Positions 6,900 to 33,304 of a stretch of 34,383 bases of DNA are shown piece after piece. The number at the start of each line of letters is the position of its first letter. Position 1 is the stretch's first letter. The translations under genes and the position numbers were made by a program. Source of the stretch: Pseudomonadota bacterium (GTDB taxonomy: Bacteria; Desulfobacterota; Desulfobulbia; Desulfobulbales; JAGXFP01); the NCBI GenBank assembly GCA_018814305.1, contig JAHJAA010000041.1:1-34383 (forward strand), written 5' to 3'. The notes under the pieces were generated by a model that was given only the letters and a program-made list of their open reading frames with translations, had not been told where the DNA came from and ran no database searches.

Positions 6900-6981
6900 C
6901 CAGAGGCCGAGATCATAAAATCTGCTCGTCGCCAGCTGGAGGATTTATTTGCCGGCGTATAATAAAACAGGAATCGAGATC

Positions 6982-8175
6982 ATGGACGAAAAACAAGAGA
7001 AGAGTTTTGCTGAGATGTTTGATCAAGGCTTTCAAACGCCGGAACGATTTGATCCTGGTCAGCAGATCGAGGCGAGAGTGGTTCGAATCGGTGGCGATAG
7101 TGTTTTTCTGGATATTGGCGGCAAGAGCGAAGGCTATATCCGGAGGGAAGAGTTTCTTAGTAAGGATGGGACCGTCTCCGTCAAGGAGGGGGATCTGATC
7201 AATGCCTATTTCCTCTCAGCAGAGCGCAGTGAGATGCTCTTTACCACGAGCCTCGGGACCGGCCCTGCCGCCCGGGCCCATTTGCAGGAAGCCTACGCTA
7301 GCCGGATTCCGGTTGAAGGTTTGGTGGTCAAGGAAGTAAAGGGCGGTTTCGAGATTAAGCTTGCCGGGAGCCTTCGGGCCTTCTGTCCCTTTTCCCAGAT
7401 TGACCTGAGGCGGGTCGAGGGTGCTGATGACTGGGAGGGCAAAAGTCTTCCATTCTTAATTACCAAGTACGATGAGGCCGGTCGAAATATTGTCTTGAGC
7501 CGCCGGTTGCTCTTGGAGAATGAACGAAAAGAGCAGCGGGAAAAATTACGGGAACAACTGGTTGTTGGTCAGTTGATCAAAGGGAAAATTTCCTCGATCC
7601 GTGATTTTGGGGCTTTTGTCGATATCGGTGGGATTGAGGGATTGATCCCCGTTTCGGAAATTGGCTGGGGCCGGGTGGAAGATATCCATGCTATTTTGGA
7701 ACCCGGTCAAGAGGTGGAGGTTGCCGTCCTCAAGTTGGACTGGGAAAATGACCGATTTTCTTTCAGCCTGAAGCAGACCATGACCGATCCCTGGGAGGAA
7801 AATGCGCAAAAATTGCACGAAGGTGATTTTGTTTCAGGACTCGTGGTCAGACTGACCACCTTTGGGGCTTTTGTCAATCTGGGTGAGGGGGTTGACGGAT
7901 TGATTCACATCTCTAATCTTGGCGGGGGACGCCGGATCAATCATCCCCGCGAGGTGGTCACCGAAGGCGAAACGGTCGAAGTTCGAATCGACTCCATTGA
8001 TCTCAGCCAGCGCCGGGTCGGACTTTCCCTGGCCGCCTCGGTCAAGGCAGCTGAAGAGGAAGTACGAGAACAGGAGGAGGTCCGAAGTTATATCAAAAAA
8101 GAAACGATCACCGAGACCCAAACCATGGGGACCCTAGGTGATCTTCTAAAACAAAAACTGAAGGGGAAAGGTTGA
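6982..8175 (+). CDS. Four-S1-domain RNA-binding protein (short S1-like)
   Basis: A 397-residue cytoplasmic protein built from S1/OB-fold RNA-binding domains. Domains 3 (about 205-275, KGKISSIRDFGAFVDIGG) and 4 (about 290-360, GLVVRLTTFGAFVNLG) match the S1 consensus closely. Domain 1 (about 30-105, ARVVRIGGDSVFLDIGGKSEG) is good, and domain 2 is degenerate. A Glu-rich helix and a basic tail follow. At under 400 residues it is shorter than ribosomal protein S1 (about 550), so it is likely an S1-like translation or RNA-turnover factor, not rpsA itself. The start is ambiguous: ATG 6982 has AGGA 9 nt upstream and gives the family-like beginning MDEKQEKSFAEMF, while an in-frame TTG at 6949 has an excellent GGAGGA and would add 11 residues. 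Confidence 0.88.
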   Translation: MDEKQEKSFAEMFDQGFQTPERFDPGQQIEARVVRIGGDSVFLDIGGKSEGYIRREEFLSKDGTVSVKEGDLINAYFLSAERSEMLFTTSLGTGPAARAHLQEAYASRIPVEGLVVKEVKGGFEIKLAGSLRAFCPFSQIDLRRVEGADDWEGKSLPFLITKYDEAGRNIVLSRRLLLENERKEQREKLREQLVVGQLIKGKISSIRDFGAFVDIGGIEGLIPVSEIGWGRVEDIHAILEPGQEVEVAVLKLDWENDRFSFSLKQTMTDPWEENAQKLHEGDFVSGLVVRLTTFGAFVNLGEGVDGLIHISNLGGGRRINHPREVVTEGETVEVRIDSIDLSQRRVGLSLAASVKAAEEEVREQEEVRSYIKKETITETQTMGTLGDLLKQKLKGKG

Positions 8176-8184
8176 GGAAGGGCG

Positions 8185-8321
8185 GTTAAATTGGTTAGAT
8201 CGGTTTGATTTGTTTAATTGGTTGGATTTGTTAACTGCATTTATAGCTCCGATCAAATTAATTCAATCACTAAACGTTTCCAGCGAGTCAAACCAACTCA
8301 ACCAGTCTAACCAATTAAACC
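8185..8321 (+). repeat. 9-nt-period intergenic repeat element, copy 3
   Basis: This is the clearest copy. Left arm units are GTTAAATTG (8185-8193), GTTAGATCG, GTTTGATTT, GTTTAATTG, GTTGGATTT and GTTAACTGC, six in register with no slips. After a 47-nt middle, right arm units AGTCAAACC (8286-8294), AACTCAACC, AGTCTAACC and AATTAAACC follow in register. Read as reverse complement, the right arm gives GGTT-led units similar to the left, so the whole can fold on itself. It fills the gap between the S1-like gene and hgcA and ends 9 nt before the hgcA ATG. Confidence 0.8.
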
Positions 8322-8330
8322 GTAACTAAT

Positions 8331-9491
8331 ATGAACCAGAATTCCTTCCCCATACTTCAAACCCTGCCCATGGAAAGTACCCCTTGCTGTGGATCGACCG
8401 GTTCACCGCCTGCGGACCCGAATGAGCGGCCTGGATACGCTCTCTGCCCCTATGTCGTGGGTTTCATGGAAACGGTGGTTGGGCCGGTACCTCGGGTTGC
8501 AACCAGCCTCACCTGGCGTGATGATAGCGGGACGGTGCGGGCTCGGTTGGGGCTCTCACGCGAGAACTACAGGATTTCCCCAGGTCTGTACTGTGTCGGT
8601 TATCCCAACGCCCTCTCGCCGATTCTGGTAACCGCCAACTATAAACTGACGTTTGATGCCCTCCGGTGTGAATTGGTTGGAATGAACTGCTGGATTTTGG
8701 CCCTTGATACCAGGGGGGTGAATGTCTGGTGCGCATCGGCCCACAAGACCTTTGGCACAGAGGAACTGGTTAGGCAGATCAAGCGGTGGCGGCTTTCCGA
8801 TCTGGTTGAGCATCAGGAGGTGATTGTCCCGCAACTTGGAGCAAGTGGCGTTTCCGCCCGGGATGTTAAGCAATGGACCGGGTTCAGGGTAACCTGGGGA
8901 CCTATTCGAGCAGCTGATCTGAGAACTTTTTTGCGAAACGACAAGAAGGCCTCAGCGGGGATGCGCCAGGTTACCTTCGATTGGTCGGACCGTCTAATTC
9001 TTTCACCGGTTGAACTGGTGCTGTTCTGGAAACCGACTGTGATCTTGTTGGTGGCTCTGCTGTTACTTTCAGGGATTGGTCCCGATATCTTTTCGGCGTC
9101 CACGGCTTGGCATCGCTGGCGTTTGATTGCCTCGGCCTACCTGGGGGGGCTGTTGACCGGCACGGTTGTGGTCCCAGTCCTTCTGCCCTGGCTTCCGTTC
9201 CGCTCGTTTTATCTGAAGGGACTGCTGGCCGCTTTGCCGGTTGGTCTGGGGCTGGTCTGGCCGTACTTTCGGAGTGGAGAGTCCTGGATTACCCCGGCTG
9301 GTCCACTTCTCCTCTGTTTTGCCGTTGCATCGTATGCTGCGATGAACTATACCGGAGCAACTCCTTATGCTTCACCATCGGGTGTGGAAAAAGAAATGCG
9401 TCATGCCATTCCGGTTCAGCTTTTCTTATTTGTCGGGGCATTATTTTGCTGGTTGATTGAGCCGTTTATGATCACGGTCGGAGGCTTGTAA
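8331..9491 (+). CDS. hgcA: Mercury methylation corrinoid protein HgcA
   Basis: HgcA carries the methyl-corrinoid that donates a methyl group to Hg(II), forming methylmercury at the cytoplasmic face of the inner membrane. The 386-residue product has the corrinoid-binding globular domain at about 55-220: VTANYKLTFDALR (100-112), LDTRGVNVWCASAHK with the cobalt-ligand Cys134, FGTEELVRQIK, and LPQLGAS-like QLGASGVSARDVK plus GPIRAADL. About five membrane helices follow (about 235-385), including the family signature NYTGATPYASPSGVEKEM. The cap-helix motif usually reads N(V/I)WCA(A/G)GK; here it is NVWCASAHK, keeping the essential Cys but replacing the G-K with A-H. The ATG at 8331 has no strong ribosome site. 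hgcB follows with a one-base overlap. The S1-like gene is upstream on the same strand. The call itself is firm; methylation activity is not proven by sequence. Confidence 0.95.
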   Translation: MNQNSFPILQTLPMESTPCCGSTGSPPADPNERPGYALCPYVVGFMETVVGPVPRVATSLTWRDDSGTVRARLGLSRENYRISPGLYCVGYPNALSPILVTANYKLTFDALRCELVGMNCWILALDTRGVNVWCASAHKTFGTEELVRQIKRWRLSDLVEHQEVIVPQLGASGVSARDVKQWTGFRVTWGPIRAADLRTFLRNDKKASAGMRQVTFDWSDRLILSPVELVLFWKPTVILLVALLLLSGIGPDIFSASTAWHRWRLIASAYLGGLLTGTVVVPVLLPWLPFRSFYLKGLLAALPVGLGLVWPYFRSGESWITPAGPLLLCFAVASYAAMNYTGATPYASPSGVEKEMRHAIPVQLFLFVGALFCWLIEPFMITVGGL

Positions 9492-9778
9492 TGGAAGCGT
9501 TTCGGTATATCCCCGGAGTTGTCACCTTGCAGCTCAAAGAGGTGCTGTGTGTTGGTTGCGGGGCCTGCGAGAGTGTTTGCCCCCATCAGGTCTTTCAGGT
9601 GGAAAATGGGAAGGCTCAGGTTCTGGATCGTGACGGCTGCATGGAGTGCGGGGCCTGTGTCAACAATTGCCCCACCAAGGCGCTTACGGTGAATCCAGGG
9701 GTGGGTTGCGCCTCATATATCATTCAGAAGTGGTGGATGAAGCTTCGTGGGGTTGAAGGGGAGATCACCTGCTGCTAA
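9491..9778 (+). CDS. hgcB: Mercury methylation ferredoxin HgcB
   Basis: HgcB is a 2[4Fe-4S] ferredoxin that delivers electrons to reduce the HgcA corrinoid and is thought to help deliver Hg(II). The 95-residue protein has two CX2CX2CX3C clusters (Cys20, 23, 26, 30 and Cys50, 53, 56, 60), the conserved Cys73 in VGCAS, and a C-terminal vicinal pair Cys94-Cys95. Length and all three extra cysteines match what is described for the functional Desulfovibrio protein. The start ATG overlaps the hgcA stop by one base (TAATG), with GGAGG 6 nt upstream, so the pair is translationally coupled. No clear intrinsic terminator is visible after it; it converges on the DUF2807 gene at 9818. Confidence 0.96.
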   Translation: MEAFRYIPGVVTLQLKEVLCVGCGACESVCPHQVFQVENGKAQVLDRDGCMECGACVNNCPTKALTVNPGVGCASYIIQKWWMKLRGVEGEITCC

Positions 9779-9817: not shown

Positions 9818-10498
9818 TTATTCCATCTCATTCAGGCTCCCGATGCCGATAATTTCCTTGGTTATCACTTTTGGTTGGCCAAAGTAATTGATATCGGAGA
9901 TCCCGGTAATGGTCACCTTTAGCGTTTCTGATGCAAAAATATTCGACACCCCGTTACCCGACATCGTAATGGATACCTCCTTGGCTTTCAGTTCCTGGGC
10001 AATAAGTTCGCCGGAGCCAGGGATATCTGCGTCGAAGGATTGGGCAATTCCTTGGAGGGTGACATCACCGTTACCAGTAAACATCAGAGAGAATTTTCCG
10101 GTGTTGATGTTGGAGATCTTGATCGAATCAGAGCCCGCTGCAATCAGGGCGTAAAAACTGTTAACCTGAATGTTGAGCACTATTCCAATGTCGGAACAGA
10201 GCGGTCGTTCCGGATAGATGGTCATTTTACTGCCCTGGGATATGGTGGAGATCAAGGGAATCAGATTTTCGTCGGCGGTGATTGAAAGTTTCTGGGCCCG
10301 GGCACCGCTGGTGACATTGACGGTAAAATCGCCGGAAACCTCAAGGATTGCGAAAGGGGGAAGGGGTCTCTCCACCGTGGCAACAATCTCGTTACCCCGC
10401 TCACAATCATCATAGAGATTAGGGGTATAGGCGTGAGCGCCGGAAAGAGTGGCTATGAAAAAAAACAAGGTTGGGAGAAGTAGACGAAAGAACTTCAT
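9818..10498 (-). CDS. Exported DUF2807 (GIN-domain) protein
   Basis: The 226-residue product starts with a clear Sec signal peptide (MKFFRLLLPTLFFFIATLSGAHA, likely cleaved after AHA). The mature part is one GIN/DUF2807 domain, a beta-helix-like fold: an LEVSGDFTVNV strand, DENLIPLI, then repeated short strands with G-S-G/G-N-G turns (GSDSIKISN, GNGDVTLQG, GSGELIAQE, GNGVSNIFA). Such proteins are predicted envelope adhesion or scaffold domains of unknown function. An upstream GTG at 10510 would add four residues before the signal peptide, but ATG 10498 gives the better signal sequence. The ribosome binding site is weak. It converges with hgcB and follows rlmB by 52 bp on the same strand, so it may be read through from the rlmB unit. 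Confidence 0.8.
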   Translation of the reverse strand: MKFFRLLLPTLFFFIATLSGAHAYTPNLYDDCERGNEIVATVERPLPPFAILEVSGDFTVNVTSGARAQKLSITADENLIPLISTISQGSKMTIYPERPLCSDIGIVLNIQVNSFYALIAAGSDSIKISNINTGKFSLMFTGNGDVTLQGIAQSFDADIPGSGELIAQELKAKEVSITMSGNGVSNIFASETLKVTITGISDINYFGQPKVITKEIIGIGSLNEME

Positions 10499-10550
10499 GA
10501 TTAGATGCACTCAATTTACTGATTAGCTTGTCGTTATCGCCTCTAAGGGG

Positions 10551-15719: not shown

Positions 15720-17141
15720 TTATTTTATCTCGATGGCGCCGTTTTTGAAATTGACGGTGGCGTTTAAGTATCGGTTGCGGCGTCCGGCCCGGTCGAGGAT
15801 TGTGTGGGCCATTTCTGCCCTGGTTCCCGAGGCGCAGAAGAGAATAAGTTCTTGGCCAGCGGGGATTTCCGCCAGCAGGCGTCCAATCCGGTCAACCGGG
15901 AAATTGAGGGCTTCGGGGATGCTGCCGGCGGCAAATTCCTCGGGATTGCGGACATCCAGATAGAGTTTATCCACCGGCTTTCCATGGGTGCCACGGGCAA
16001 ATTCCTCAACGGAAATGGTCCCACTTTTCGGCTGAGGATGATAGACGAGGTTCCGTCGGGTTGGTCCGGTTTCCACCGGATAGCCCGCCGCCTGCCAGGT
16101 CTCGAAGCTGACCGGTAGGATGGTTACGGCTCGATAGCCCCGGTCGATGAGGGTTGCTGCGACCTTCTTCCGTTCCGGGCCATAAAGGATGATCGGGGCG
16201 TTTTTTTCCTCCGGGAAAGAGGTTTTGCCTGATCTGAAGTTTGCTGGGGTTAGATTGACGCTGCCCGGAAGATGACTGCGGGTTGCTTGGATTTCCGAAC
16301 GCAGATCGATCAGTACATGGGGCGTGCCGTTTTTGATGGCGGATTTTAACCATTCGATTGAAGTGATAGCCCAGTCGTGCTCCACCCAATCCGGAAACCC
16401 TCCGGCATAGACGGAAATCTTGGTATATCCGAGGCTCTTGGCCGTAAGGGCTGCGGTCGGACCAAGACCGCCTCCTGTTCCGGAAAAGATAATGGGGGTG
16501 GTTTTGTCCATGGGCAGGATCGTGCTCATGGCTTCAAAATCAATAAGCGGCAGCAGCATGGCCCCGGGGATATGGCCCATGCTGTATTGCTCGAGGGGCC
16601 GGACGTCGTACACCCGCAGAGCAGGATTTTTTATCCTCTGGAGGAATTCCCCATGGGACAAAAACTCTTCTTCGGGAATGAGCTTGTGATAGTCGAACAA
16701 GGTGATTGCTGTTGCCACTTTATCGCCTTGAGCTTCGATATAGTCAATAATGAGTCCCTGGTTGAGGGAGGTGGCCAGATCCTCAAACGAATCCACTGAA
16801 GAGAGGTTCGTAAGATTGGTGTATTTGATTACTTCTTTATGGGTGATAAAATCCATCTGGATGGTTTGCGACGGTGGGGCAATGAGATCAAGAAAACCAA
16901 ACATGACTCCAGCCTTCAAGTCATGACAGTTTGTGCATAGACCCGTCGAGGGGAGCGGTTCGTCGGGTAAGGCAAAGGACGGTCGCGATAGGGACGTCAG
17001 GTTGCCACAGAGTACAATTATCAGCAAAAAAACGGCGCGCAAGGGAAAACGATGGTGGTGGGAGATAATACTTGAGGTTTGGTTTAATAGAACTTTAGAG
17101 GGGGTCGGGTGGGAGCATAGGCCCAAAAAAACTTTTTTCAT
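15720..17141 (-). CDS. Exported triple-rhodanese protein with one heme-c-type CXXCH motif
   Basis: A 473-residue exported protein. After a long N-terminus with a hydrophobic segment (about 33-46), the mature part opens with CTNCH (Cys69, Cys72, His73), a single c-type heme motif. Three rhodanese-like domains follow at about 155-245, 255-345 and 370-470. Only the third has an active-site Cys loop (LFCASGTR, Cys436); the first has IFSGTGGG and the second ILYGPERK where the catalytic Cys would be. It aligns domain-for-domain with the selenocysteine rhodanese upstream, including the shared TRAEMAH and NATV ends, so the two are paralogs. The ATG at 17141 with GAGG about 8 nt upstream is preferred over the adjacent TTG at 17144. 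The likely place is the periplasm or outer face of the inner membrane. Heme attachment and sulfur transfer are inferred from motifs. Confidence 0.8.
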   Translation of the reverse strand: MKKVFLGLCSHPTPSKVLLNQTSSIISHHHRFPLRAVFLLIIVLCGNLTSLSRPSFALPDEPLPSTGLCTNCHDLKAGVMFGFLDLIAPPSQTIQMDFITHKEVIKYTNLTNLSSVDSFEDLATSLNQGLIIDYIEAQGDKVATAITLFDYHKLIPEEEFLSHGEFLQRIKNPALRVYDVRPLEQYSMGHIPGAMLLPLIDFEAMSTILPMDKTTPIIFSGTGGGLGPTAALTAKSLGYTKISVYAGGFPDWVEHDWAITSIEWLKSAIKNGTPHVLIDLRSEIQATRSHLPGSVNLTPANFRSGKTSFPEEKNAPIILYGPERKKVAATLIDRGYRAVTILPVSFETWQAAGYPVETGPTRRNLVYHPQPKSGTISVEEFARGTHGKPVDKLYLDVRNPEEFAAGSIPEALNFPVDRIGRLLAEIPAGQELILFCASGTRAEMAHTILDRAGRRNRYLNATVNFKNGAIEIK

Positions 17142-17239
17142 CAATACGCCTCAAACAGGGGATCATACGGTATCAGGAGTACGCTCTTGGTCTCACGAAT
17201 GAAAGGGAAGAAGCGTCCGGCCTGGGGTTAAAATGAAAA

Positions 17240-17270
17240 CAGGTCGGACCCCGTGAGGAATCCGACCTGT
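17240..17270 (-). terminator. Terminator-like hairpin between the two rhodanese genes
   Basis: CAGGTCGGA at 17240-17248 and TCCGACCTG at 17261-17269 form a perfect 9-bp stem with a 12-nt loop. Read on the minus strand the stem is followed by TTTTCATTTT, a fair rho-independent terminator for the upstream selenocysteine rhodanese gene, about 270 bases past its stop. It lies about 100 bases before the next gene start, so that gene probably has its own promoter. Confidence 0.75.
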
Positions 17271-17310
17271 GAAACATACCATAATCTTTTAAAAAATGGA
17301 TGAAGAGATT

Positions 17311-17391
17311 AGGGGCCGTCATAAAACAACATGGCCATTTATAGTCATGTCACTCCGGCCCCTTATGCCATTCAGCTTGTTTGGCCATGTT
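17311..17391 (-). other. Interleaved inverted repeats (pseudoknot-like topology)
   Basis: AGGGGCCG (17311-17318) is complementary to CGGCCCCT (17356-17363), and AACATGGCCA (17328-17337) is complementary to TGGCCATGTT (17382-17391). The order is A, B, A', B', which is an H-type pseudoknot arrangement of 8 and 10 bp. It sits in the untranslated stretch just before the terminator at 17240-17270 as read on the minus strand. It could be a 3'-UTR structure, a small RNA, or a binding site; no known RNA family is recognised. Confidence 0.45.
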
Positions 17392-17538
17392 ATTTGTTGA
17401 CAGAGGCTTAGGGGTTGTTACGAAAGGTTCATTGTTTAATAGCTACAATCGAGCCAGCCCCCCATACCGATAAGGAATAATGTTAATGTACGGACTTTAT
17501 TTACCCTTGCTTCCTGCTCGTTTCCGGCTGGGAATTAG

Positions 17539-18864
17539 TTATTCTTCCGCAGTGCAGATACCCTCTTCACATTCGACAGTGGCTACCAGGAAGAGTGAAG
17601 TGAGTCCGGATTTTTTAAGGGTTTGATGGGCCATTTCAGCCCTGGCCCCGGTGGAGCAGTGAACCAGAATTTCCTTGTCCTTGGGCAGTTCCGTCAGGCG
17701 GTCATCGAGTTCATCCAGGGGGATGTTGATCGCGCCGGAAAACATGCCATCGGCGGTTTCGTCAAGATTACGGACATCGAGGATTATACGGCCCGTACCT
17801 TTGCCTGCAGCCACCTTATTGAAATCGTCGAGGCCGACTTCTCCTTCTTCAAGTTTGCGAACCCAATTGATCTCCGAAGCAGCGGGGCCAGTGACCAGGG
17901 TGTTGCCGGCGGCCTGCCAGCCGATCAACCCTCCCTCAACCAGTGAAATGGATTTGTATCCCCAGTCTTTAAGGGTTTTCATGGCCATTTTGATGTCAGC
18001 AGGTTCCCCATAGAGGACGAAGGGGGCAGCCTTGCTTGGGGGGAAATTGTCTTCGGCCTCAGCAAGTTCAGCCGCGGGGATGTTTACCGCCCCTTTGATG
18101 TGCCCGGAGGCTGCGGCCGGGGCGGGACGGAGGTCGAGAATAATGGCGTTGCCGTTTGCCACGAAATCATTACTGGCGACGAGTTTCTGCCCGGCCTTTT
18201 TCCAGCCCGGAGCTCCTTTCAGCATGACCTTGATTGAAGAATAGCCCAATTTACCCGCCAGACCGGCGGATGAGGTGCTCATCCCTCAGGTGGGGCCCCC
18301 GCAGTAAAAAATGAGCAGTTTGTCTTTATGGTCGTCGGGCAGCAGTGATTTTCCCTCACTTTTCATCTTCTCCACCGGGATGGAGACCGCGCCGGGAATA
18401 TGTCCTGCGGCATACGGTCCTGCCGGTCTGGAATCTATCAGTAAATAATTCCCTTGTTTGGGGCCAAGGGCGATCAGAGGAATCAGCTCCTCAGGTTGTA
18501 GCTCACTCACCCCGGGGGGCAGCTCAGCCAGTTTTGGTTCCACCGTGATCGCAATCTTGTTTTTTCCGTCCATCCGGTAGGTGATAATGGCCGCTTCGCC
18601 TTTTTGGGCATGTTCCATGCCGACGGTGGCATCGGTGAATTTGACATTGGCCGGGCCGGTTTTTTCTTCAATGGTGATGGTCCTGGCCTTGTTGGAGACC
18701 CCGAGGATTTTTCCTTTAGCCTTGGCGGTTTGGGTGGCGGTCGCGACCTTCTGGCTGCTGTCGGCCAGGTCGGTGGCGTAGGCAGAAACTCCAGAGGAAC
18801 CTGTGGTGATGAGTGTTGCCAGCATTATCGCCGGCACACTAAAGAGTAGTTTTCTTGAACGCAT
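17539..18864 (-). CDS. Exported triple-rhodanese selenoprotein (UGA read as selenocysteine)
   Basis: Read through the in-frame UGA at 18286-18288, this gives a 441-residue protein with Sec193. It has a signal peptide (MRSRKLLFSVPAIMLATLIT..., cleaved near SAYA), a small beta domain (about 50-112) and three rhodanese domains (about 120-225, 230-325, 340-435). In the first, the active-site loop reads IFYCGGPT-Sec-GMS where homologues I know have Cys; Cys188 is five residues earlier. The second lacks a Cys (VLYGEPAD); the third has HCSTGARAEMAH (Cys403). The reading frame, similarity and paralogy with the neighbouring gene all run on after the UGA, and a SECIS-like hairpin follows it. The start ATG has GGGAG 7 nt upstream. 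The C-terminus adds ECEEGICTAEE. Likely periplasmic sulfur or selenium-linked transfer. Without the UGA reading, it would be called two genes, 18286-18864 and 17539-18282. Confidence 0.85.
18253..18285 (-). promoter_or_regulatory. Bacterial SECIS hairpin candidate
   Basis: Directly 3' of the UGA on the minus strand, CCGCC (18269-18265) pairs with GGCGG (18259-18255), extended by a U-G and an A-U pair to about 7 bp, with apical loop GGUCU (18264-18260). The loop begins 21 nt after the UGA. E. coli fdhF has the same GGUCU bases in its apical loop, about 18 nt after its UGA, which is the element bound by SelB. The local sequence also allows an alternative 7-bp hairpin just upstream (GGAUGAG-CAC-CUCAUCC, 18284-18268) that cannot form at the same time. 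Confidence 0.8.
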
Positions 18865-27354: not shown

Positions 27355-30300
27355 TTAATTACTGAGTTCCCGCCAGGTCTGCATTCCACTCCTGATCGCC
27401 CCGGGATTACTTTGTTCAACGGTGATAATGGCACCCGTACTGGTTTGCACAAAGGCCTTGGTCCCGTCGGCTGAACCACTGTGGATATTTGGGGTGGTCG
27501 CCAGACCAATTCCAACATCGATTTTGCGGAGATTTGTGGTCACACCGGCAGTAGTTTGAGAACCGATCACTGACTTGCGATACGCCGTGCCGGTACGGTA
27601 GAACGGCGCCCAGAGATAACTGTATCCTTCCGGGCTGCAAAGGGTCTCGGAAGGAACAAAGGTCGTGAAGGTTACCACATTTCCCAGAATCGCCGCCTGG
27701 CCGAGGTTTCGCTCTCCGTCAAGATCAAAATCGATTTTCCAGCCATGGTAGTAGTCCAGCCCTCCAAGATCTCGTTCGCTGATCTTATTATTCAATTCGG
27801 TGAACGTTGCAGAGTTGATCAACGCACCGTCGGTGTCTTTGATGACCCCGTTTAGATCACCGCTGACATTTTCGACCCAGGCACTGGAAGTATCAATCAA
27901 CCGCGCGCTATTGGTGAGTGAAAGATCGAGTTGATCTGCGGCGTCATAGGTTTCTTTCAGGCCGTAGTAACTCTGTGGGGCCTTGGCTTTTTTGTCTGAT
28001 CCTGCGGCAAGATACCGACCGGTGCCGAAATAGACCCAGGCCCGGAAGCCGTCAGAGGCCACAGAAGGTGACGCCATGACCGGTTGATGACCGGGGGTGG
28101 CAAAGAAGGTATTCATGTACCATTGCGCCGGATCCAGATCATCGTCCAGGACCAGGCGGTGCATCCCGCCGGTATGAAGGTTGTGGTCAAGGTTCGAGTT
28201 GGCGATTGATCCGAAATAGAGACTGTCAACCTTGAAATTGAGGTCATGGTCAACCGCGATCACGTCACTGAAGAATGAGTTGGGGAATGTCCCCGGATCA
28301 TTCACTACTAGAGGGAAACCTGCTTGAACTGCAGGCATCCCGGCGGTGGTGACGTACGGCAAGGCAAATCCACCGGTGCCACCAAGCTTCAGGATATAGA
28401 GTCTGGCCAACTGGCTGCTTTGTCCCTGCATCGCCTGGAGTGGAAGGGCCGGATCATAGGGCCCGGAACTTAAGGCCAGGTACCAGTCCATGGGCCAGGT
28501 CGTGATGTCCTGGTCGGGGCAGCTTACCTTGAGTCCACACCGTAACATCGGGATGGCGGTGGGGGCACCGACGGTAAAACCCAGGTTGGGGTCGGTAAAC
28601 TCGGCAAGGAGTTTGGGAGGGACTTCCGGGTTGGTAATGTCGAGCATGATATAGGCCGAGCGCATGGTCTGATCGTCAGTGCCATCGCCATTAAGATCGA
28701 CCCCGATGTTACCGCCACCAAATCTCATCCCCGCGACCAGTATCGTGCCCCAGCCACCGGGATGGTCGGGGCCGCTGATGAGATCGGTAGGATCGAAGAT
28801 CTTGGCGTCAAAGATATACGGTTTTTGATCCACGTAAAAGACATGGGAATAATCAACATCGGTCAGCCACTTGAGGTGGGGCCAGAGATTCTTGGGGATG
28901 TACATCCACATCTCAGCTCCCAGGTCGTACTGGACCTTTCCTGGGGGGCCCTTGAGGAATGATCTGGTGGCTCGATCATAATGGCCCCCATTAAATGCGT
29001 GAAGACCTCCGTCATTACCGCCGGCATAGACCATGGTTCGGCGGTTCCGGTAAAGCGCCCGGAAGGCCTGATAGGATTTATCTTGGTAGATTGTGTCGTA
29101 GTCCTCGGCGGGTTGGCTGACCACGGTGGGGGTTGAATAAACAATATCACCGAGTTTCCAGATTTCAGTGATGCCGTCACCGTCCCAGTCAATCTCCCGT
29201 GAACGGTAGCCAACTTGATCGACTCCCCTGATGTAATTGACAATCTTGTCTGCCTCTGCCGCATCGGCGGCGTTGAAATAGCCGGGGTAGGTAGCACCCA
29301 GGGCCCCGGCAAGGGTGGCCGGGGTGAAGGCAATTGCAGTGGTGCCGTTGGTGCTGGTAAAAATATATCGGTCATTGGCGGTGGCGGCATAGGAACCCTT
29401 CTGGGCTGAAGAGGCCCCGGCCAACCATTCACCGGCACTCCAGAGATAATGCAATTCGTTCAATTTGACGTTGTCTTCCATAAAGTCCGCGGCGTCATAA
29501 TGATCATCACCATCCGCATCACTATAGCGTCGGGCCCGGGCAGAATTGTTGACGGGATCGGTATAAAATTCAAGGATGTTATCCATGTCTGAAACCAGGG
29601 TGAAATCCTGGGGTGTTCCGAGGCAACCCGTATCACTGCAGTCTTCCCGGATATTACCGCGATCATCCAACCACAGGGAGTGGACATCTCCGGCCCAGGT
29701 TATTTCCCGCAGGGAGCTATCGATCTGTTTGGGATAGAAAACCGCCTGGTAAATAGCCCCTTCACCGCTTCGAGAGTTGGAGATAACCGAGGCGGCGGAA
29801 CCGGAAGCCGGTTCACCACCAATGGACTCAAAGACATCCCGGAGGGATTGATCCAATTCATCCGGATTGCTGGCCTCAATGAGGACGGTTCCCGCGTTGG
29901 CGGAGGTCTCGCCGAGAATGTTTTTGGGCTCACATTCCAGGTTCGGATCTGCTGGAACTTGGAGGGTGTTGGCCACTACGATATGGGTGACGATATTCTT
30001 TTTGTCTTCTCCCTCAACTGTCTGGTAAGTGCCTTGGTAGATCGAGGCCCCGTTCTTGTTGGCATAATAGACCAAATCATCCATCATGGTGCTGCCGAAG
30101 AGGGTGCTTACGGGATTTCCGGTCACACTGTCGATGCCCTTGCATTCGTAACTGGTGCCTTCGGTAATTCCTGCCTGCCAGGTTTCAGCCAGGACGGTGT
30201 CATTATGGGTGGCAACAAAGTCGGTGACTGGACTGGTCGCGTTCACACCGTCATAATCGGCCGTGGCGGCACCGTCGGTGATGATCAGAATATTGTTGGT

Positions 30301-32622
30301 TTGGCAGGAGGCAATTATGGGATCATACGAGGTCCATTTTACCCCGAGATCATCTTCAATACTGCCGGTGGATGAATTGGAAGTCCCGCCGTCGTTGGTA
30401 AAATAGAGCTTGGTCTCGGTTTCATCAATCGCCCCGTCACCGTTGTGATCCCAGTTGTGGGTAAATTTGACCTTGTCGCCTGGATTGTAGAGGGTCGCAT
30501 TGGTCCAGCCACCAACACCTAAGGCTGCGGCGTCGTGATCCCAGATAAAGTCGGCGGGATCCAATCGGAGATTGTTGACGTTATCCTGGGTGTAATAGCC
30601 GATGGCGTTAAACAGGGCTTCGGAGGTGGGGGTCCAGGCAGTGGCCTCGATATTATTGATCGCGGTGACCAATTGACTGTTATGGGTGATTCCGTCATCT
30701 ATATAGGAAATGACTCGGCCACCGTTGCGTTTGCTTGGATCAGGGAGCGATCCGGCATGGATGGCGGCACCTTTGTCAAGCAGGCAGTCATAGAGTGAGG
30801 CGATATATCGTCCGGAACCAACGGGTTGCTCAAGGGGATAACACTCGGACTTGGGTCCGGTATTGAATTCCATGGCCCCGAGGCGCAGGTTGTACTTGAA
30901 TTCCTGGATCAGGCCGGCGGGAGGATTGGGCATCGCGATCCTGCCCATGGCGGAAAGCAGGGGATTCCCCAACTGGGATTGGGTAGCGGCGTCGACCAAC
31001 AGGGCCGGAAGCCCCCAAGCCGTCCCTTGGGGATCGGTATAATCGGAAGGGTCGATGGTGGTGGGTTCATCGAGTCCTTGGCAATATTTTTTTAAGGACG
31101 CATCAACGCAGGTATAACCCTGGGGTTTGGGATTCACATCCAGCCCGGGATCATCATTCGTCCAGTCTACTGAAGTAATTCCTCCAGCGCCGGGGACGGC
31201 ATCCTGGACCTTCACCCAGTTGCCGGGACTGCCGACGCATTTATGTTGGGAGGCATTATAGGAGCCGTCACAGACATACCAGACATTCACGGTGCCGAAG
31301 CCGGCATTGGTGTTGCAAAAGGGATTGGCGTTGGTGGTTGGATCGGAGGCGGGGATACAAGTCCGGTCTTGCCAGACAAAGGCGCCGGCCTGGGGTTCCC
31401 AACATTGGCCGATATAACCGACTCCCCAAGGGCCTCCAACCGGATGGGTAGGGTCGTACTGACCATAGCAGACATCCGAGCCATTTTGATCCTCCGGAGG
31501 GGAATAGCCTCCCCCAGGAGCTGCCCCCGGGGTTGCGTTGTAAACGTTTTCACAGTCATTCACCAGGGAAGTGACTGTCCCGTTTCCTCCCTGCCAGGCT
31601 TGGTGCTTGTTATAATACCAACACTCCTGCATGATGTGGTTAAAGGCGGTCTGTGAGGCGAACAGGCCGGTTCCCATGGGGTCGAGGCAGGCTTTTGTTT
31701 CACTTTTCACGTTACCGAGATTTCCAGCGGCAAAGGCCTCGATGGCATCGCTGCAATCGGCGAAGATCATGCCGGTTTTCGAGACGCCATAGATGTCCAA
31801 CCGGGTATTGCTTAAGGCGCCATTGAAGAGAAGATCCGCGTTCTTTTCCAAAGCGGTCGGGGGGCGGATCCCAAAGGTTGCCACATAATAGCTTCCACCG
31901 TTGCCAATGGGGATATCCTTGATGAAACGCTTGCTGTCGCAACCTCGGGACTCAAGGACTGCTTGGAAATGGACAGGGTCATATCTGCCACCGGTCAGGA
32001 CCTTTTTCTCCACATCAAACTTGGAGGACATCAGCCAGTTCAGCAAACGGCCTTTAGCTGCAAAGGCGGTGACCACATCGGGGGCGGGGGCGACCGGGGT
32101 TTCGTCGATGGTCAGGCATAACTCAGTGCCGGTATACTTGGTGCCTGCCGCCGTGCTGCAGAAGGTAGCGGCATCAGCAGCCGATACGGTTTCAAATTGG
32201 CCAGCAATATATTTGTACCAACTACCCGCCGCCGGATTGAAATAACCAGAATAGGTTACGGCAGCATCGTAATCAACGTCGAGAATACCGTCGCCATCCA
32301 CATCCTCGGTGTCTGAGGTTGTGGTGTTGCCGTCATTGTTGAGGTCGGTATCGATAGCCCCATCACCATCAAGATCTTCAACCCCGCGCACATAGCAGTA
32401 GTTGTCACCCTGGCTGTTGCGATAGGCGGGATCGAACATACTGGCCGAGTTATCGATCAACAAGAGCAGATTGGGGTTAAGACCAACCTCCAGGAAGGCG
32501 GGAATCTTGGTATAGTCATACATGGTCTCGGCAAAGACGATATTTACTCCTCCGGATAAAGTCGCCGAGAGTGCAATACCCCATAAGAGACGGTACATAA
32601 TCTTACTGATTGTATGCTTCAT
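27355..32622 (-). CDS. pilY1: PilY1-type pilus-associated adhesin
   Basis: A 1755-residue exported protein. After the signal sequence (MKHTISKIMYRLLWGIALSATLSGGVNIVFA) the mature part has a VWA-type MIDAS motif LLIDNSASM (Asp57, Ser59, Ser61), a calcium-loop-rich region with DLDGDGAID, NNDGN and DVDGDGILD (about 83-116), and further loops DHNGDGAID, DADGDD, DWDGDGIT and DLNGDGTDD later. The C-terminal third (about 1130-1755) is the PilC/PilY1 beta-propeller region, with VYAGGNDGGLHAFNGG, MWMYIPKNLWPHLKWL, VFYVDQKPYIFDA and WGTILVAGMRFGG. PilY1 sits at the pilus tip and acts in adhesion and surface sensing. The ATG at 32622 has AGGTGG about 5 nt upstream; a longer reading to 32886 overlaps pilX and was rejected. 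It follows pilX by 88 bp in the minor-pilin operon. Confidence 0.92.
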   Translation of the reverse strand: MKHTISKIMYRLLWGIALSATLSGGVNIVFAETMYDYTKIPAFLEVGLNPNLLLLIDNSASMFDPAYRNSQGDNYCYVRGVEDLDGDGAIDTDLNNDGNTTTSDTEDVDGDGILDVDYDAAVTYSGYFNPAAGSWYKYIAGQFETVSAADAATFCSTAAGTKYTGTELCLTIDETPVAPAPDVVTAFAAKGRLLNWLMSSKFDVEKKVLTGGRYDPVHFQAVLESRGCDSKRFIKDIPIGNGGSYYVATFGIRPPTALEKNADLLFNGALSNTRLDIYGVSKTGMIFADCSDAIEAFAAGNLGNVKSETKACLDPMGTGLFASQTAFNHIMQECWYYNKHQAWQGGNGTVTSLVNDCENVYNATPGAAPGGGYSPPEDQNGSDVCYGQYDPTHPVGGPWGVGYIGQCWEPQAGAFVWQDRTCIPASDPTTNANPFCNTNAGFGTVNVWYVCDGSYNASQHKCVGSPGNWVKVQDAVPGAGGITSVDWTNDDPGLDVNPKPQGYTCVDASLKKYCQGLDEPTTIDPSDYTDPQGTAWGLPALLVDAATQSQLGNPLLSAMGRIAMPNPPAGLIQEFKYNLRLGAMEFNTGPKSECYPLEQPVGSGRYIASLYDCLLDKGAAIHAGSLPDPSKRNGGRVISYIDDGITHNSQLVTAINNIEATAWTPTSEALFNAIGYYTQDNVNNLRLDPADFIWDHDAAALGVGGWTNATLYNPGDKVKFTHNWDHNGDGAIDETETKLYFTNDGGTSNSSTGSIEDDLGVKWTSYDPIIASCQTNNILIITDGAATADYDGVNATSPVTDFVATHNDTVLAETWQAGITEGTSYECKGIDSVTGNPVSTLFGSTMMDDLVYYANKNGASIYQGTYQTVEGEDKKNIVTHIVVANTLQVPADPNLECEPKNILGETSANAGTVLIEASNPDELDQSLRDVFESIGGEPASGSAASVISNSRSGEGAIYQAVFYPKQIDSSLREITWAGDVHSLWLDDRGNIREDCSDTGCLGTPQDFTLVSDMDNILEFYTDPVNNSARARRYSDADGDDHYDAADFMEDNVKLNELHYLWSAGEWLAGASSAQKGSYAATANDRYIFTSTNGTTAIAFTPATLAGALGATYPGYFNAADAAEADKIVNYIRGVDQVGYRSREIDWDGDGITEIWKLGDIVYSTPTVVSQPAEDYDTIYQDKSYQAFRALYRNRRTMVYAGGNDGGLHAFNGGHYDRATRSFLKGPPGKVQYDLGAEMWMYIPKNLWPHLKWLTDVDYSHVFYVDQKPYIFDAKIFDPTDLISGPDHPGGWGTILVAGMRFGGGNIGVDLNGDGTDDQTMRSAYIMLDITNPEVPPKLLAEFTDPNLGFTVGAPTAIPMLRCGLKVSCPDQDITTWPMDWYLALSSGPYDPALPLQAMQGQSSQLARLYILKLGGTGGFALPYVTTAGMPAVQAGFPLVVNDPGTFPNSFFSDVIAVDHDLNFKVDSLYFGSIANSNLDHNLHTGGMHRLVLDDDLDPAQWYMNTFFATPGHQPVMASPSVASDGFRAWVYFGTGRYLAAGSDKKAKAPQSYYGLKETYDAADQLDLSLTNSARLIDTSSAWVENVSGDLNGVIKDTDGALINSATFTELNNKISERDLGGLDYYHGWKIDFDLDGERNLGQAAILGNVVTFTTFVPSETLCSPEGYSYLWAPFYRTGTAYRKSVIGSQTTAGVTTNLRKIDVGIGLATTPNIHSGSADGTKAFVQTSTGAIITVEQSNPGAIRSGMQTWRELSN

Positions 32623-32710
32623 AATCCCACCTGGTTTATTGAATCTTTCCACTGCGCTTTGTTCTGGTCGGATTGTCGGTTTTTCCGACAACCGGAACAA
32701 ATGCCCGTGG

Positions 32711-33304
32711 TTACTTAGTGATATATCGGTAATGCATGGCCAGATCGGTTTGGGTCTGATCCGCATCGTGTCCCGTTGACACAAGATTGTAGACAATAGT
32801 GGCCCCGCCACCGCCGAGGCCTTTGCCGATTCCGGCATAACCTGCGGCAACCTGGAGGGCGCCGCCCTTGGTGATTTTGGCGACAAGCCTTTGGGGGCGA
32901 ATTTCGGCCTTCAGGTCACCTTTCATCCGGATTTTGACATCTCCGGTCACGTTTTCATCCATATAGAAAGAGCCGTCTCCCAGGATATCAATCTTATTTC
33001 CGGCTGAATCTCCGACATAATCCGGGCTGAGGTTCGGATAGGGAAAAGGAGCTGGATCGGCGGGATTGTCCCACCCGGCATTAAATGCATTGTCTTCAAG
33101 AATATCTCCCGCTGCAATCATTCCGCCTTCGGAAAAACCGAAGGAACGTGCTTTGAACTGTTGGTAGGCTGCGATCCTGACATCCATGGAGGTATCCATG
33201 CTGATGCCGACCACGGTCACTGAAATTACCAGGATTAACAGCAGGGCCGAGACCAGGGCCATACCTCGTTGGGAGGTCGGAATTTTAAGCAGTTCACTTT
33301 TCAT
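32711..33304 (-). CDS. pilX: PilX-type minor pilin assembly protein
   Basis: A 197-residue protein with the PilX N-terminal pattern SQRGMALVSALLLILVISVTVVGISMDTSMDVRIAAYQQFKARSFGFSEGGMIAAGD: a short leader, a Gly before Met (prepilin peptidase site), and a hydrophobic helix. The rest is a globular beta-rich domain. Its ATG overlaps the pilV stop by four bases (ATGA), so it is coupled to it. It helps prime the pilus with PilV, PilW and PilY1. Confidence 0.85.
   Translation of the reverse strand: MKSELLKIPTSQRGMALVSALLLILVISVTVVGISMDTSMDVRIAAYQQFKARSFGFSEGGMIAAGDILEDNAFNAGWDNPADPAPFPYPNLSPDYVGDSAGNKIDILGDGSFYMDENVTGDVKIRMKGDLKAEIRPQRLVAKITKGGALQVAAGYAGIGKGLGGGGATIVYNLVSTGHDADQTQTDLAMHYRYITK

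What the first reader, a model, noticed from the sequence alone, without database searches (positions are those of the whole stretch)
8331..9778. hgcA-hgcB mercury methylation pair with a non-canonical cap-helix motif
HgcA has all the diagnostic regions and HgcB has both clusters plus Cys73 and Cys94-Cys95 at the positions described for the functional protein. The HgcA cap helix is NVWCASAHK where I know N(V/I)WCA(A/G)GK: Cys134 is intact, but the following G-K is A-H. That Lys/Gly segment packs near the corrinoid, so this may be a functionally distinct clade or an adapted variant. A strict motif filter would miss this gene.
Basis: partly seen in the sequence, partly recalled or inferred. Interest (0 to 1): 0.85.

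Follow-up and report, generated by a model that had tools for sequence, protein, structure and literature searches.

The report
Mercury methylase with altered cobalt-site helix
This is a genuine pair of mercury-methylating genes whose helix next to the cobalt cofactor has an unusual alanine-histidine sequence found in one bacterial family alone, and the standard PCR primer and motif filters used to count mercury methylators fit it poorly or reject it.

Summary
Window 8331-9491 encodes HgcA (401.8 bits, cut-off 275) and 9491-9778 HgcB (115.2, cut-off 99; Cys73, 94, 95 and both clusters in place). The cap helix reads NVWCASAHK instead of NVWCAAGK. It is neither noise nor a private mutation: all five held genomes of this GTDB-type family (order Desulfobulbales) carry NVWCA(A/S)AH(K/Q), none of 237 other genomes of the class does, and a scan of 84,980 species found no further true case. 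The five HgcAs form one supported clade inside canonical HgcA, with conserved gene order and purifying selection. HgcB carries matching family marks (N58, W82); residue 58 is the published modelled contact of HgcA residue 96. Ala at 96 also occurs in CFeSP; His at 97, four residues after the cobalt-ligating Cys, is the real oddity. Most likely a working mercury methylase with a nitrogen side chain newly placed near the cobalt (inferred, untested). All five genes mismatch the 3'-terminal base of the standard hgcAB forward primer and fail three published motif filters. New variant of a known kind.

The parts
8331..9491 (+). hgcA: corrinoid-binding domain plus C-terminal membrane domain
   Evidence: NF040863 HgcA 401.8 bits, cut-off 275; tree inside HgcA; helices in the C-terminal half of the model (low confidence in the corrinoid domain)
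8721..8747 (+). cap-helix codons NVWCASAHK; Cys134 (8730-8732), Ala137 (8739-8741), His138 (8742-8744)
9117..9119 (+). Trp263 of HgcA at a membrane-domain position that is Gly in most other HgcA; already Trp in the sister sequence L114
9491..9778 (+). hgcB: dicluster ferredoxin with Cys73 and terminal Cys94-Cys95; family marks N58 and W82
   Evidence: NF040864 115.2 bits, cut-off 99
8183..8322 (.). imperfect 55-bp inverted repeat between the S1-domain gene and hgcA; parts recur elsewhere in the genome, so probably a genomic repeat and not an hgc-specific signal
6949..8175 (+). S1-domain protein, conserved upstream neighbour of hgcAB in all five family genomes
9818..10510 (-). DUF2807 protein, conserved convergent downstream neighbour

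Best explanation
A genuine, vertically inherited HgcAB mercury-methylation pair of one Desulfobulbales family in which the HgcA cap helix changed once, on the family's stem, from WCAAGK to WCA(A/S)AH(K/Q). It most likely works as other HgcAB do: HgcB's clusters reduce the corrinoid to Co(I), Co(I) takes a methyl group, Cys134 below the cobalt forms the Cys-on methyl-Co(III) state, and the methyl passes to Hg(II) held by HgcB cysteines. [quoted passage not shown] Shown here: family membership, clade, single origin, conservation, partner changes. Inferred: activity and the role of His.
For: Curated HMMs passed by both proteins and by all five family members. Tree built without the cap columns: five sequences one clade 99/89, sister L114 canonical AAGK. 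5/5 in family, 0/237 others in class, none in a 395-genome phylum sample apart from this one, no further true hit among 84,980 species. Ala-His invariant although most pairs of family HgcAs are only 53-67% identical; dN 0.11 against dS 0.49 for the closest pair. Only four positions conserved at 80% or more elsewhere are changed in the family, and two are these. HgcB residue 58, the modelled contact of HgcA Gly96 (PMC7305189), is Asn in 5/5 against 3 of 113 others; W82 in 5/5 against 1 of 113. Same chromosomal context in all five. Published: Cys93 to His keeps partial activity; Co(II) HgcAB shows an N ligand, assigned to benzimidazole because the model has no His nearby (PMC11588087).
Against: No assay exists for any member. 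The Lys position tolerates Glu, Arg, Ala and Gln in single or double cases elsewhere, so His could be a tolerated change. The HgcA and HgcB changes mark one branch, thus one event, not independent covariation; three canonical partners also have N58. The structure model was too poor in the corrinoid domain to place His138. One member (G004) carries an in-frame TAG in hgcA.
Confidence: 0.72

Rival explanations
1. Neutral variant: the two residues after WCA(A/S) tolerate change, Ala-His was fixed by drift on the family stem, and the enzyme behaves exactly like canonical HgcA.
For: Lys97 position varies in 7 of 126 non-family HgcA or HgcA-like proteins; Ala at position 96 occurs in CFeSP and is allowed by one published motif.
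Against: Ala-His stays invariant within the family while about 40% of the rest of the protein differs between genera; Gly96 is invariant in all 126 non-family sequences; Lys to His needs at least two base changes.
Confidence: 0.3
2. Shifted function: the pair has lost or changed Hg(II) methylation and serves another corrinoid methyl transfer.
For: Cap helix and HgcB interface both changed; the native role of HgcAB is not established (general knowledge); one member has a stop in hgcA.
Against: The residues published as essential (cap Cys, HgcB Cys73, terminal Cys pair, membrane domain) are kept; purifying selection; place inside HgcA.
Confidence: 0.12
3. Artefact of assembly or binning.
For: At least four of the five genomes are metagenome assemblies by their record titles; one has a stop inside hgcA.
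Against: Five separate assemblies share the motif, the flanking genes and the partner changes.
Confidence: 0.01

Closest known systems
HgcA/HgcB of Pseudodesulfovibrio mercurii ND132 (canonical HgcAB)
   Same: Domain plan, cap Cys, HgcB two clusters, Cys73, Cys94-Cys95, adjacent genes
   Different: Cap helix with Ala-His in place of Gly-Lys; HgcB Asn58 instead of Arg58; HgcB Trp82
Corrinoid iron-sulfur protein large subunit (CFeSP, AcsC/CdhE; PDB 4djd, 2h9a)
   Same: Homologous corrinoid domain (E 1e-8); Ala at the position that is Gly96 in canonical HgcA
   Different: Thr in place of the cap Cys, Asp or Ala in place of His; no membrane domain or HgcB partner; the genome has its own separate CFeSP
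HgcAB-like fusion proteins (NF043039)
   Same: Related corrinoid and ferredoxin parts; NVWCA kept in the f6 HgcA-like examples here
   Different: Query scores 185.5 bits against a cut-off of 285; separate genes here; tree places it apart from the f6 examples

Membership tests
HgcA | Curated profile score above cut-off | tested here: met
   401.8 bits, cut-off 275
HgcA | Cap-helix Cys in N(V/I)WCA | tested here: met
   Cys134; N, W, C and A invariant in 131 of 131 sequences, which were gathered by NxWC
HgcA | GK after WCA(A/G/S), used as a detection filter in surveys (PMC7438021, PMC7536318); not shown to be needed for activity and not invariant elsewhere | tested here: not met
   AH instead of GK in 5 of 5 family members; K is also replaced in 7 of 126 others
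HgcA | C-terminal membrane domain with five helices | tested here: inconclusive
   Profile covered end to end; model shows long helices over 225-383, partly low confidence
HgcA | Groups with HgcA, apart from CFeSP and HgcAB-like proteins | tested here: met
   Clade 99/89 inside HgcA, cap columns masked; the CFeSP row is a long branch
HgcA | Methylates Hg(II) | not testable with these tools
   Needs an assay
HgcB | Curated profile score; two CxxCxxCxxxCP motifs; Cys73; terminal Cys pair; next to hgcA | tested here: met
   115.2 bits, cut-off 99; Cys positions
HgcAB-like fusion (NF043039) | Curated profile score | tested here: not met
   185.5 bits, cut-off 285
CFeSP gamma subunit | Curated profile score (NF003195) | tested here: not met
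   71.1 bits, cut-off 306

The most novel reading that the evidence does not exclude
A natural HgcA lineage with a second possible cobalt ligand: His138, one turn after the ligating Cys, binds or tunes the cobalt in at least one redox state, together with a remodelled HgcB contact, giving a mercury methylase with different redox chemistry that current surveys do not see.
Probability: 0.25. Interest if true: 0.75.

Novelty: new variant of a known kind. Interest (0 to 1): 0.5.

Why it matters
Surveys of mercury methylators rest on the cap-helix motif and on primers laid over it. This family fails the published motif filters and mismatches the last base of the standard forward primer, so its share in methylmercury formation is probably under-counted. 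It also offers a natural test of an open question about the enzyme: which nitrogen ligates cobalt in the Co(II) state, which was assigned to the cofactor's own base because the canonical enzyme is modelled without a nearby His.

Tried and rejected
Relatives by single-protein search in genome contigs found nothing; a DNA pattern was used instead, and 7 of its 11 hits are chance matches in short frames. HgcA was not found on viral contigs. The ND132 mutagenesis paper (AEM 2015) is not held. Text search for WCAAAH and WCASAH found no paper. The upstream inverted repeat was considered as an hgc regulator site and set aside, because parts recur at other loci. MerB was not found, but the control was silent too, so nothing is claimed. 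CFeSP-type and HgcAB-like placement were considered and rejected.

Full report
What is there. The window holds hgcA at 8331-9491 and hgcB at 9491-9778 on the + strand, overlapping by one base. HgcA scores 401.8 bits against the curated NCBIfam HgcA model (cut-off 275) and HgcB 115.2 against HgcB (cut-off 99); the HgcAB-like fusion and CFeSP models stay far below their cut-offs. HgcB has its cysteines at 20, 23, 26, 30, 50, 53, 56, 60, 73, 94 and 95, the published ND132 positions (PMC7305189). The genome has this one HgcA and, on another contig, separate CdhD-family (CFeSP-type) genes.

The motif. The cap helix is NVWCASAHKTFGT: Cys134, Ser136, Ala137, His138. I collected 131 HgcA or HgcA-like sequences from the class. 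The residue equivalent to Gly96 is Gly in all 126 sequences outside the window's family and Ala in all five inside it. The residue equivalent to Lys97 is Lys in 119, His in the five family members, and Glu, Arg, Ala, Gln or (in two HgcA-like proteins) Gly in the other seven. So the exact letters ASAHK were seen in this genome alone, and the pattern A(A/S)AH(K/Q) marks the family.

How widespread. The DNA pattern for NxWCAxAH is in 5 of 5 genomes of the family and 0 of 237 others of the class, and in a 395-genome sample of the phylum it is only in this genome. The order name Desulfobulbales rests on the title of the first record. Limits: exact codon patterns only, contigs under 3 kb are not held, and metagenomes could not be scanned. 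No held paper contains WCAAAH or WCASAH.

Origin and constraint. In a maximum-likelihood tree with the cap columns masked, the five sequences form one clade (99/89) inside HgcA; the sister L114 has the canonical AAGK. That gives one origin, on the family stem. Family HgcAs are only 53-67% identical, apart from one pair at 82%, yet the Ala-His pair never varies. For the closest pair dN is 0.11 and dS 0.49. All five genomes keep the same neighbours: MucR-like gene, murI, lolA-like gene, S1-domain protein, hgcA, hgcB and DUF2807 protein (gene names from sequence reading, with Pfam support for the S1 and DUF2807 proteins). Where the contig reaches far enough, a TrmH-type methyltransferase, a guanylate kinase and a YicC-type gene follow. 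The pair is therefore a resident chromosomal locus, not a mobile one.

Partner changes. Of HgcA positions conserved at 80% or more elsewhere, just four are changed in the family: Gly96Ala, Lys97His, a membrane-domain Gly to Trp (already Trp in the sister), and Thr to Ala or Val at TGATPY(T)SPS. HgcB has Asn58 in 5/5 (3 of 113 others) and Trp82 in 5/5 (1 of 113 others). In the published HgcAB model the Gly96 carbonyl contacts HgcB Arg58 (PMC7305189), so the two changed sites meet in the canonical complex. This is one branch, so it is suggestive and not statistical covariation.

How it most likely works. Published work gives the cycle: HgcB reduces the corrinoid, SAM is reported as methyl donor, the methyl-Co(III) state has a Cys ligand, and the methyl passes to Hg(II) (PMC11588087). 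The cysteines published as essential are present here. CFeSP has Ala at the Gly96 site and Asp or Ala at the Lys97 site, with Thr for the Cys, so Ala there is compatible with a cap helix under a corrin. His138 is at i+4 from Cys134, the same face of a helix. The PNAS study saw nitrogen coordination in Co(II) HgcAB and favoured benzimidazole because no His is near in the model; in this family a His is expected to be near. A Cys93 to His change in ND132 keeps partial activity, so this site can accept an imidazole. That His138 touches cobalt or its Cys is inference; the model made here is too poor to place it.

Practical consequence. [quoted passage not shown] PMC7573106) mismatches all five family genes at its 3'-terminal base, with up to two further mismatches; none of 126 other HgcA genes mismatches in the last two bases. 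Filters G(I/V)NVWCAAGK (PMC7438021), NVWCA(A/G/S)GK (PMC7536318) and N(V/I)WCA(A/G)(A/G)K (PMC8163782) all reject the family. HMM searches find it.

Verdict. It is a new, family-level variant of HgcAB, probably an active mercury methylase. Whether its function is altered is open and testable.

Noticed in passing
window 8183-8322; L160-L162: An imperfect 55-bp inverted repeat made of GGTTnnATTG-like units lies before hgcA; similar stretches occur at three other places of the genome, one of them between two genes before a CBS-like reading frame.
   Followed up: partly
L031 / L061 (genome G004): hgcA of this relative has an in-frame TAG at a conserved Tyr codon of VTANYKLTF; either an assembly error or a broken gene.
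   Followed up: partly
L005 (genome G021): hgcA of this other-family relative has an in-frame TGA at a position that is not a Cys site.
   Followed up: no
L038, L157 (genomes G047, G176; also G195 by score only): Three genomes of one genus carry HgcA-like proteins well under the HgcA cut-off; the two that were read have the cap NVWCAAGGDHF and may be a separate paralogue.
   Followed up: no
window 15720-18864: Neighbouring genes with repeated rhodanese-like segments on the - strand (read by eye, not tested).
   Followed up: no
window 27355-32886: An 1843-aa reading frame that looks like a PilY1-type pilus protein next to small pilin-like frames (read by eye, not tested).
   Followed up: no
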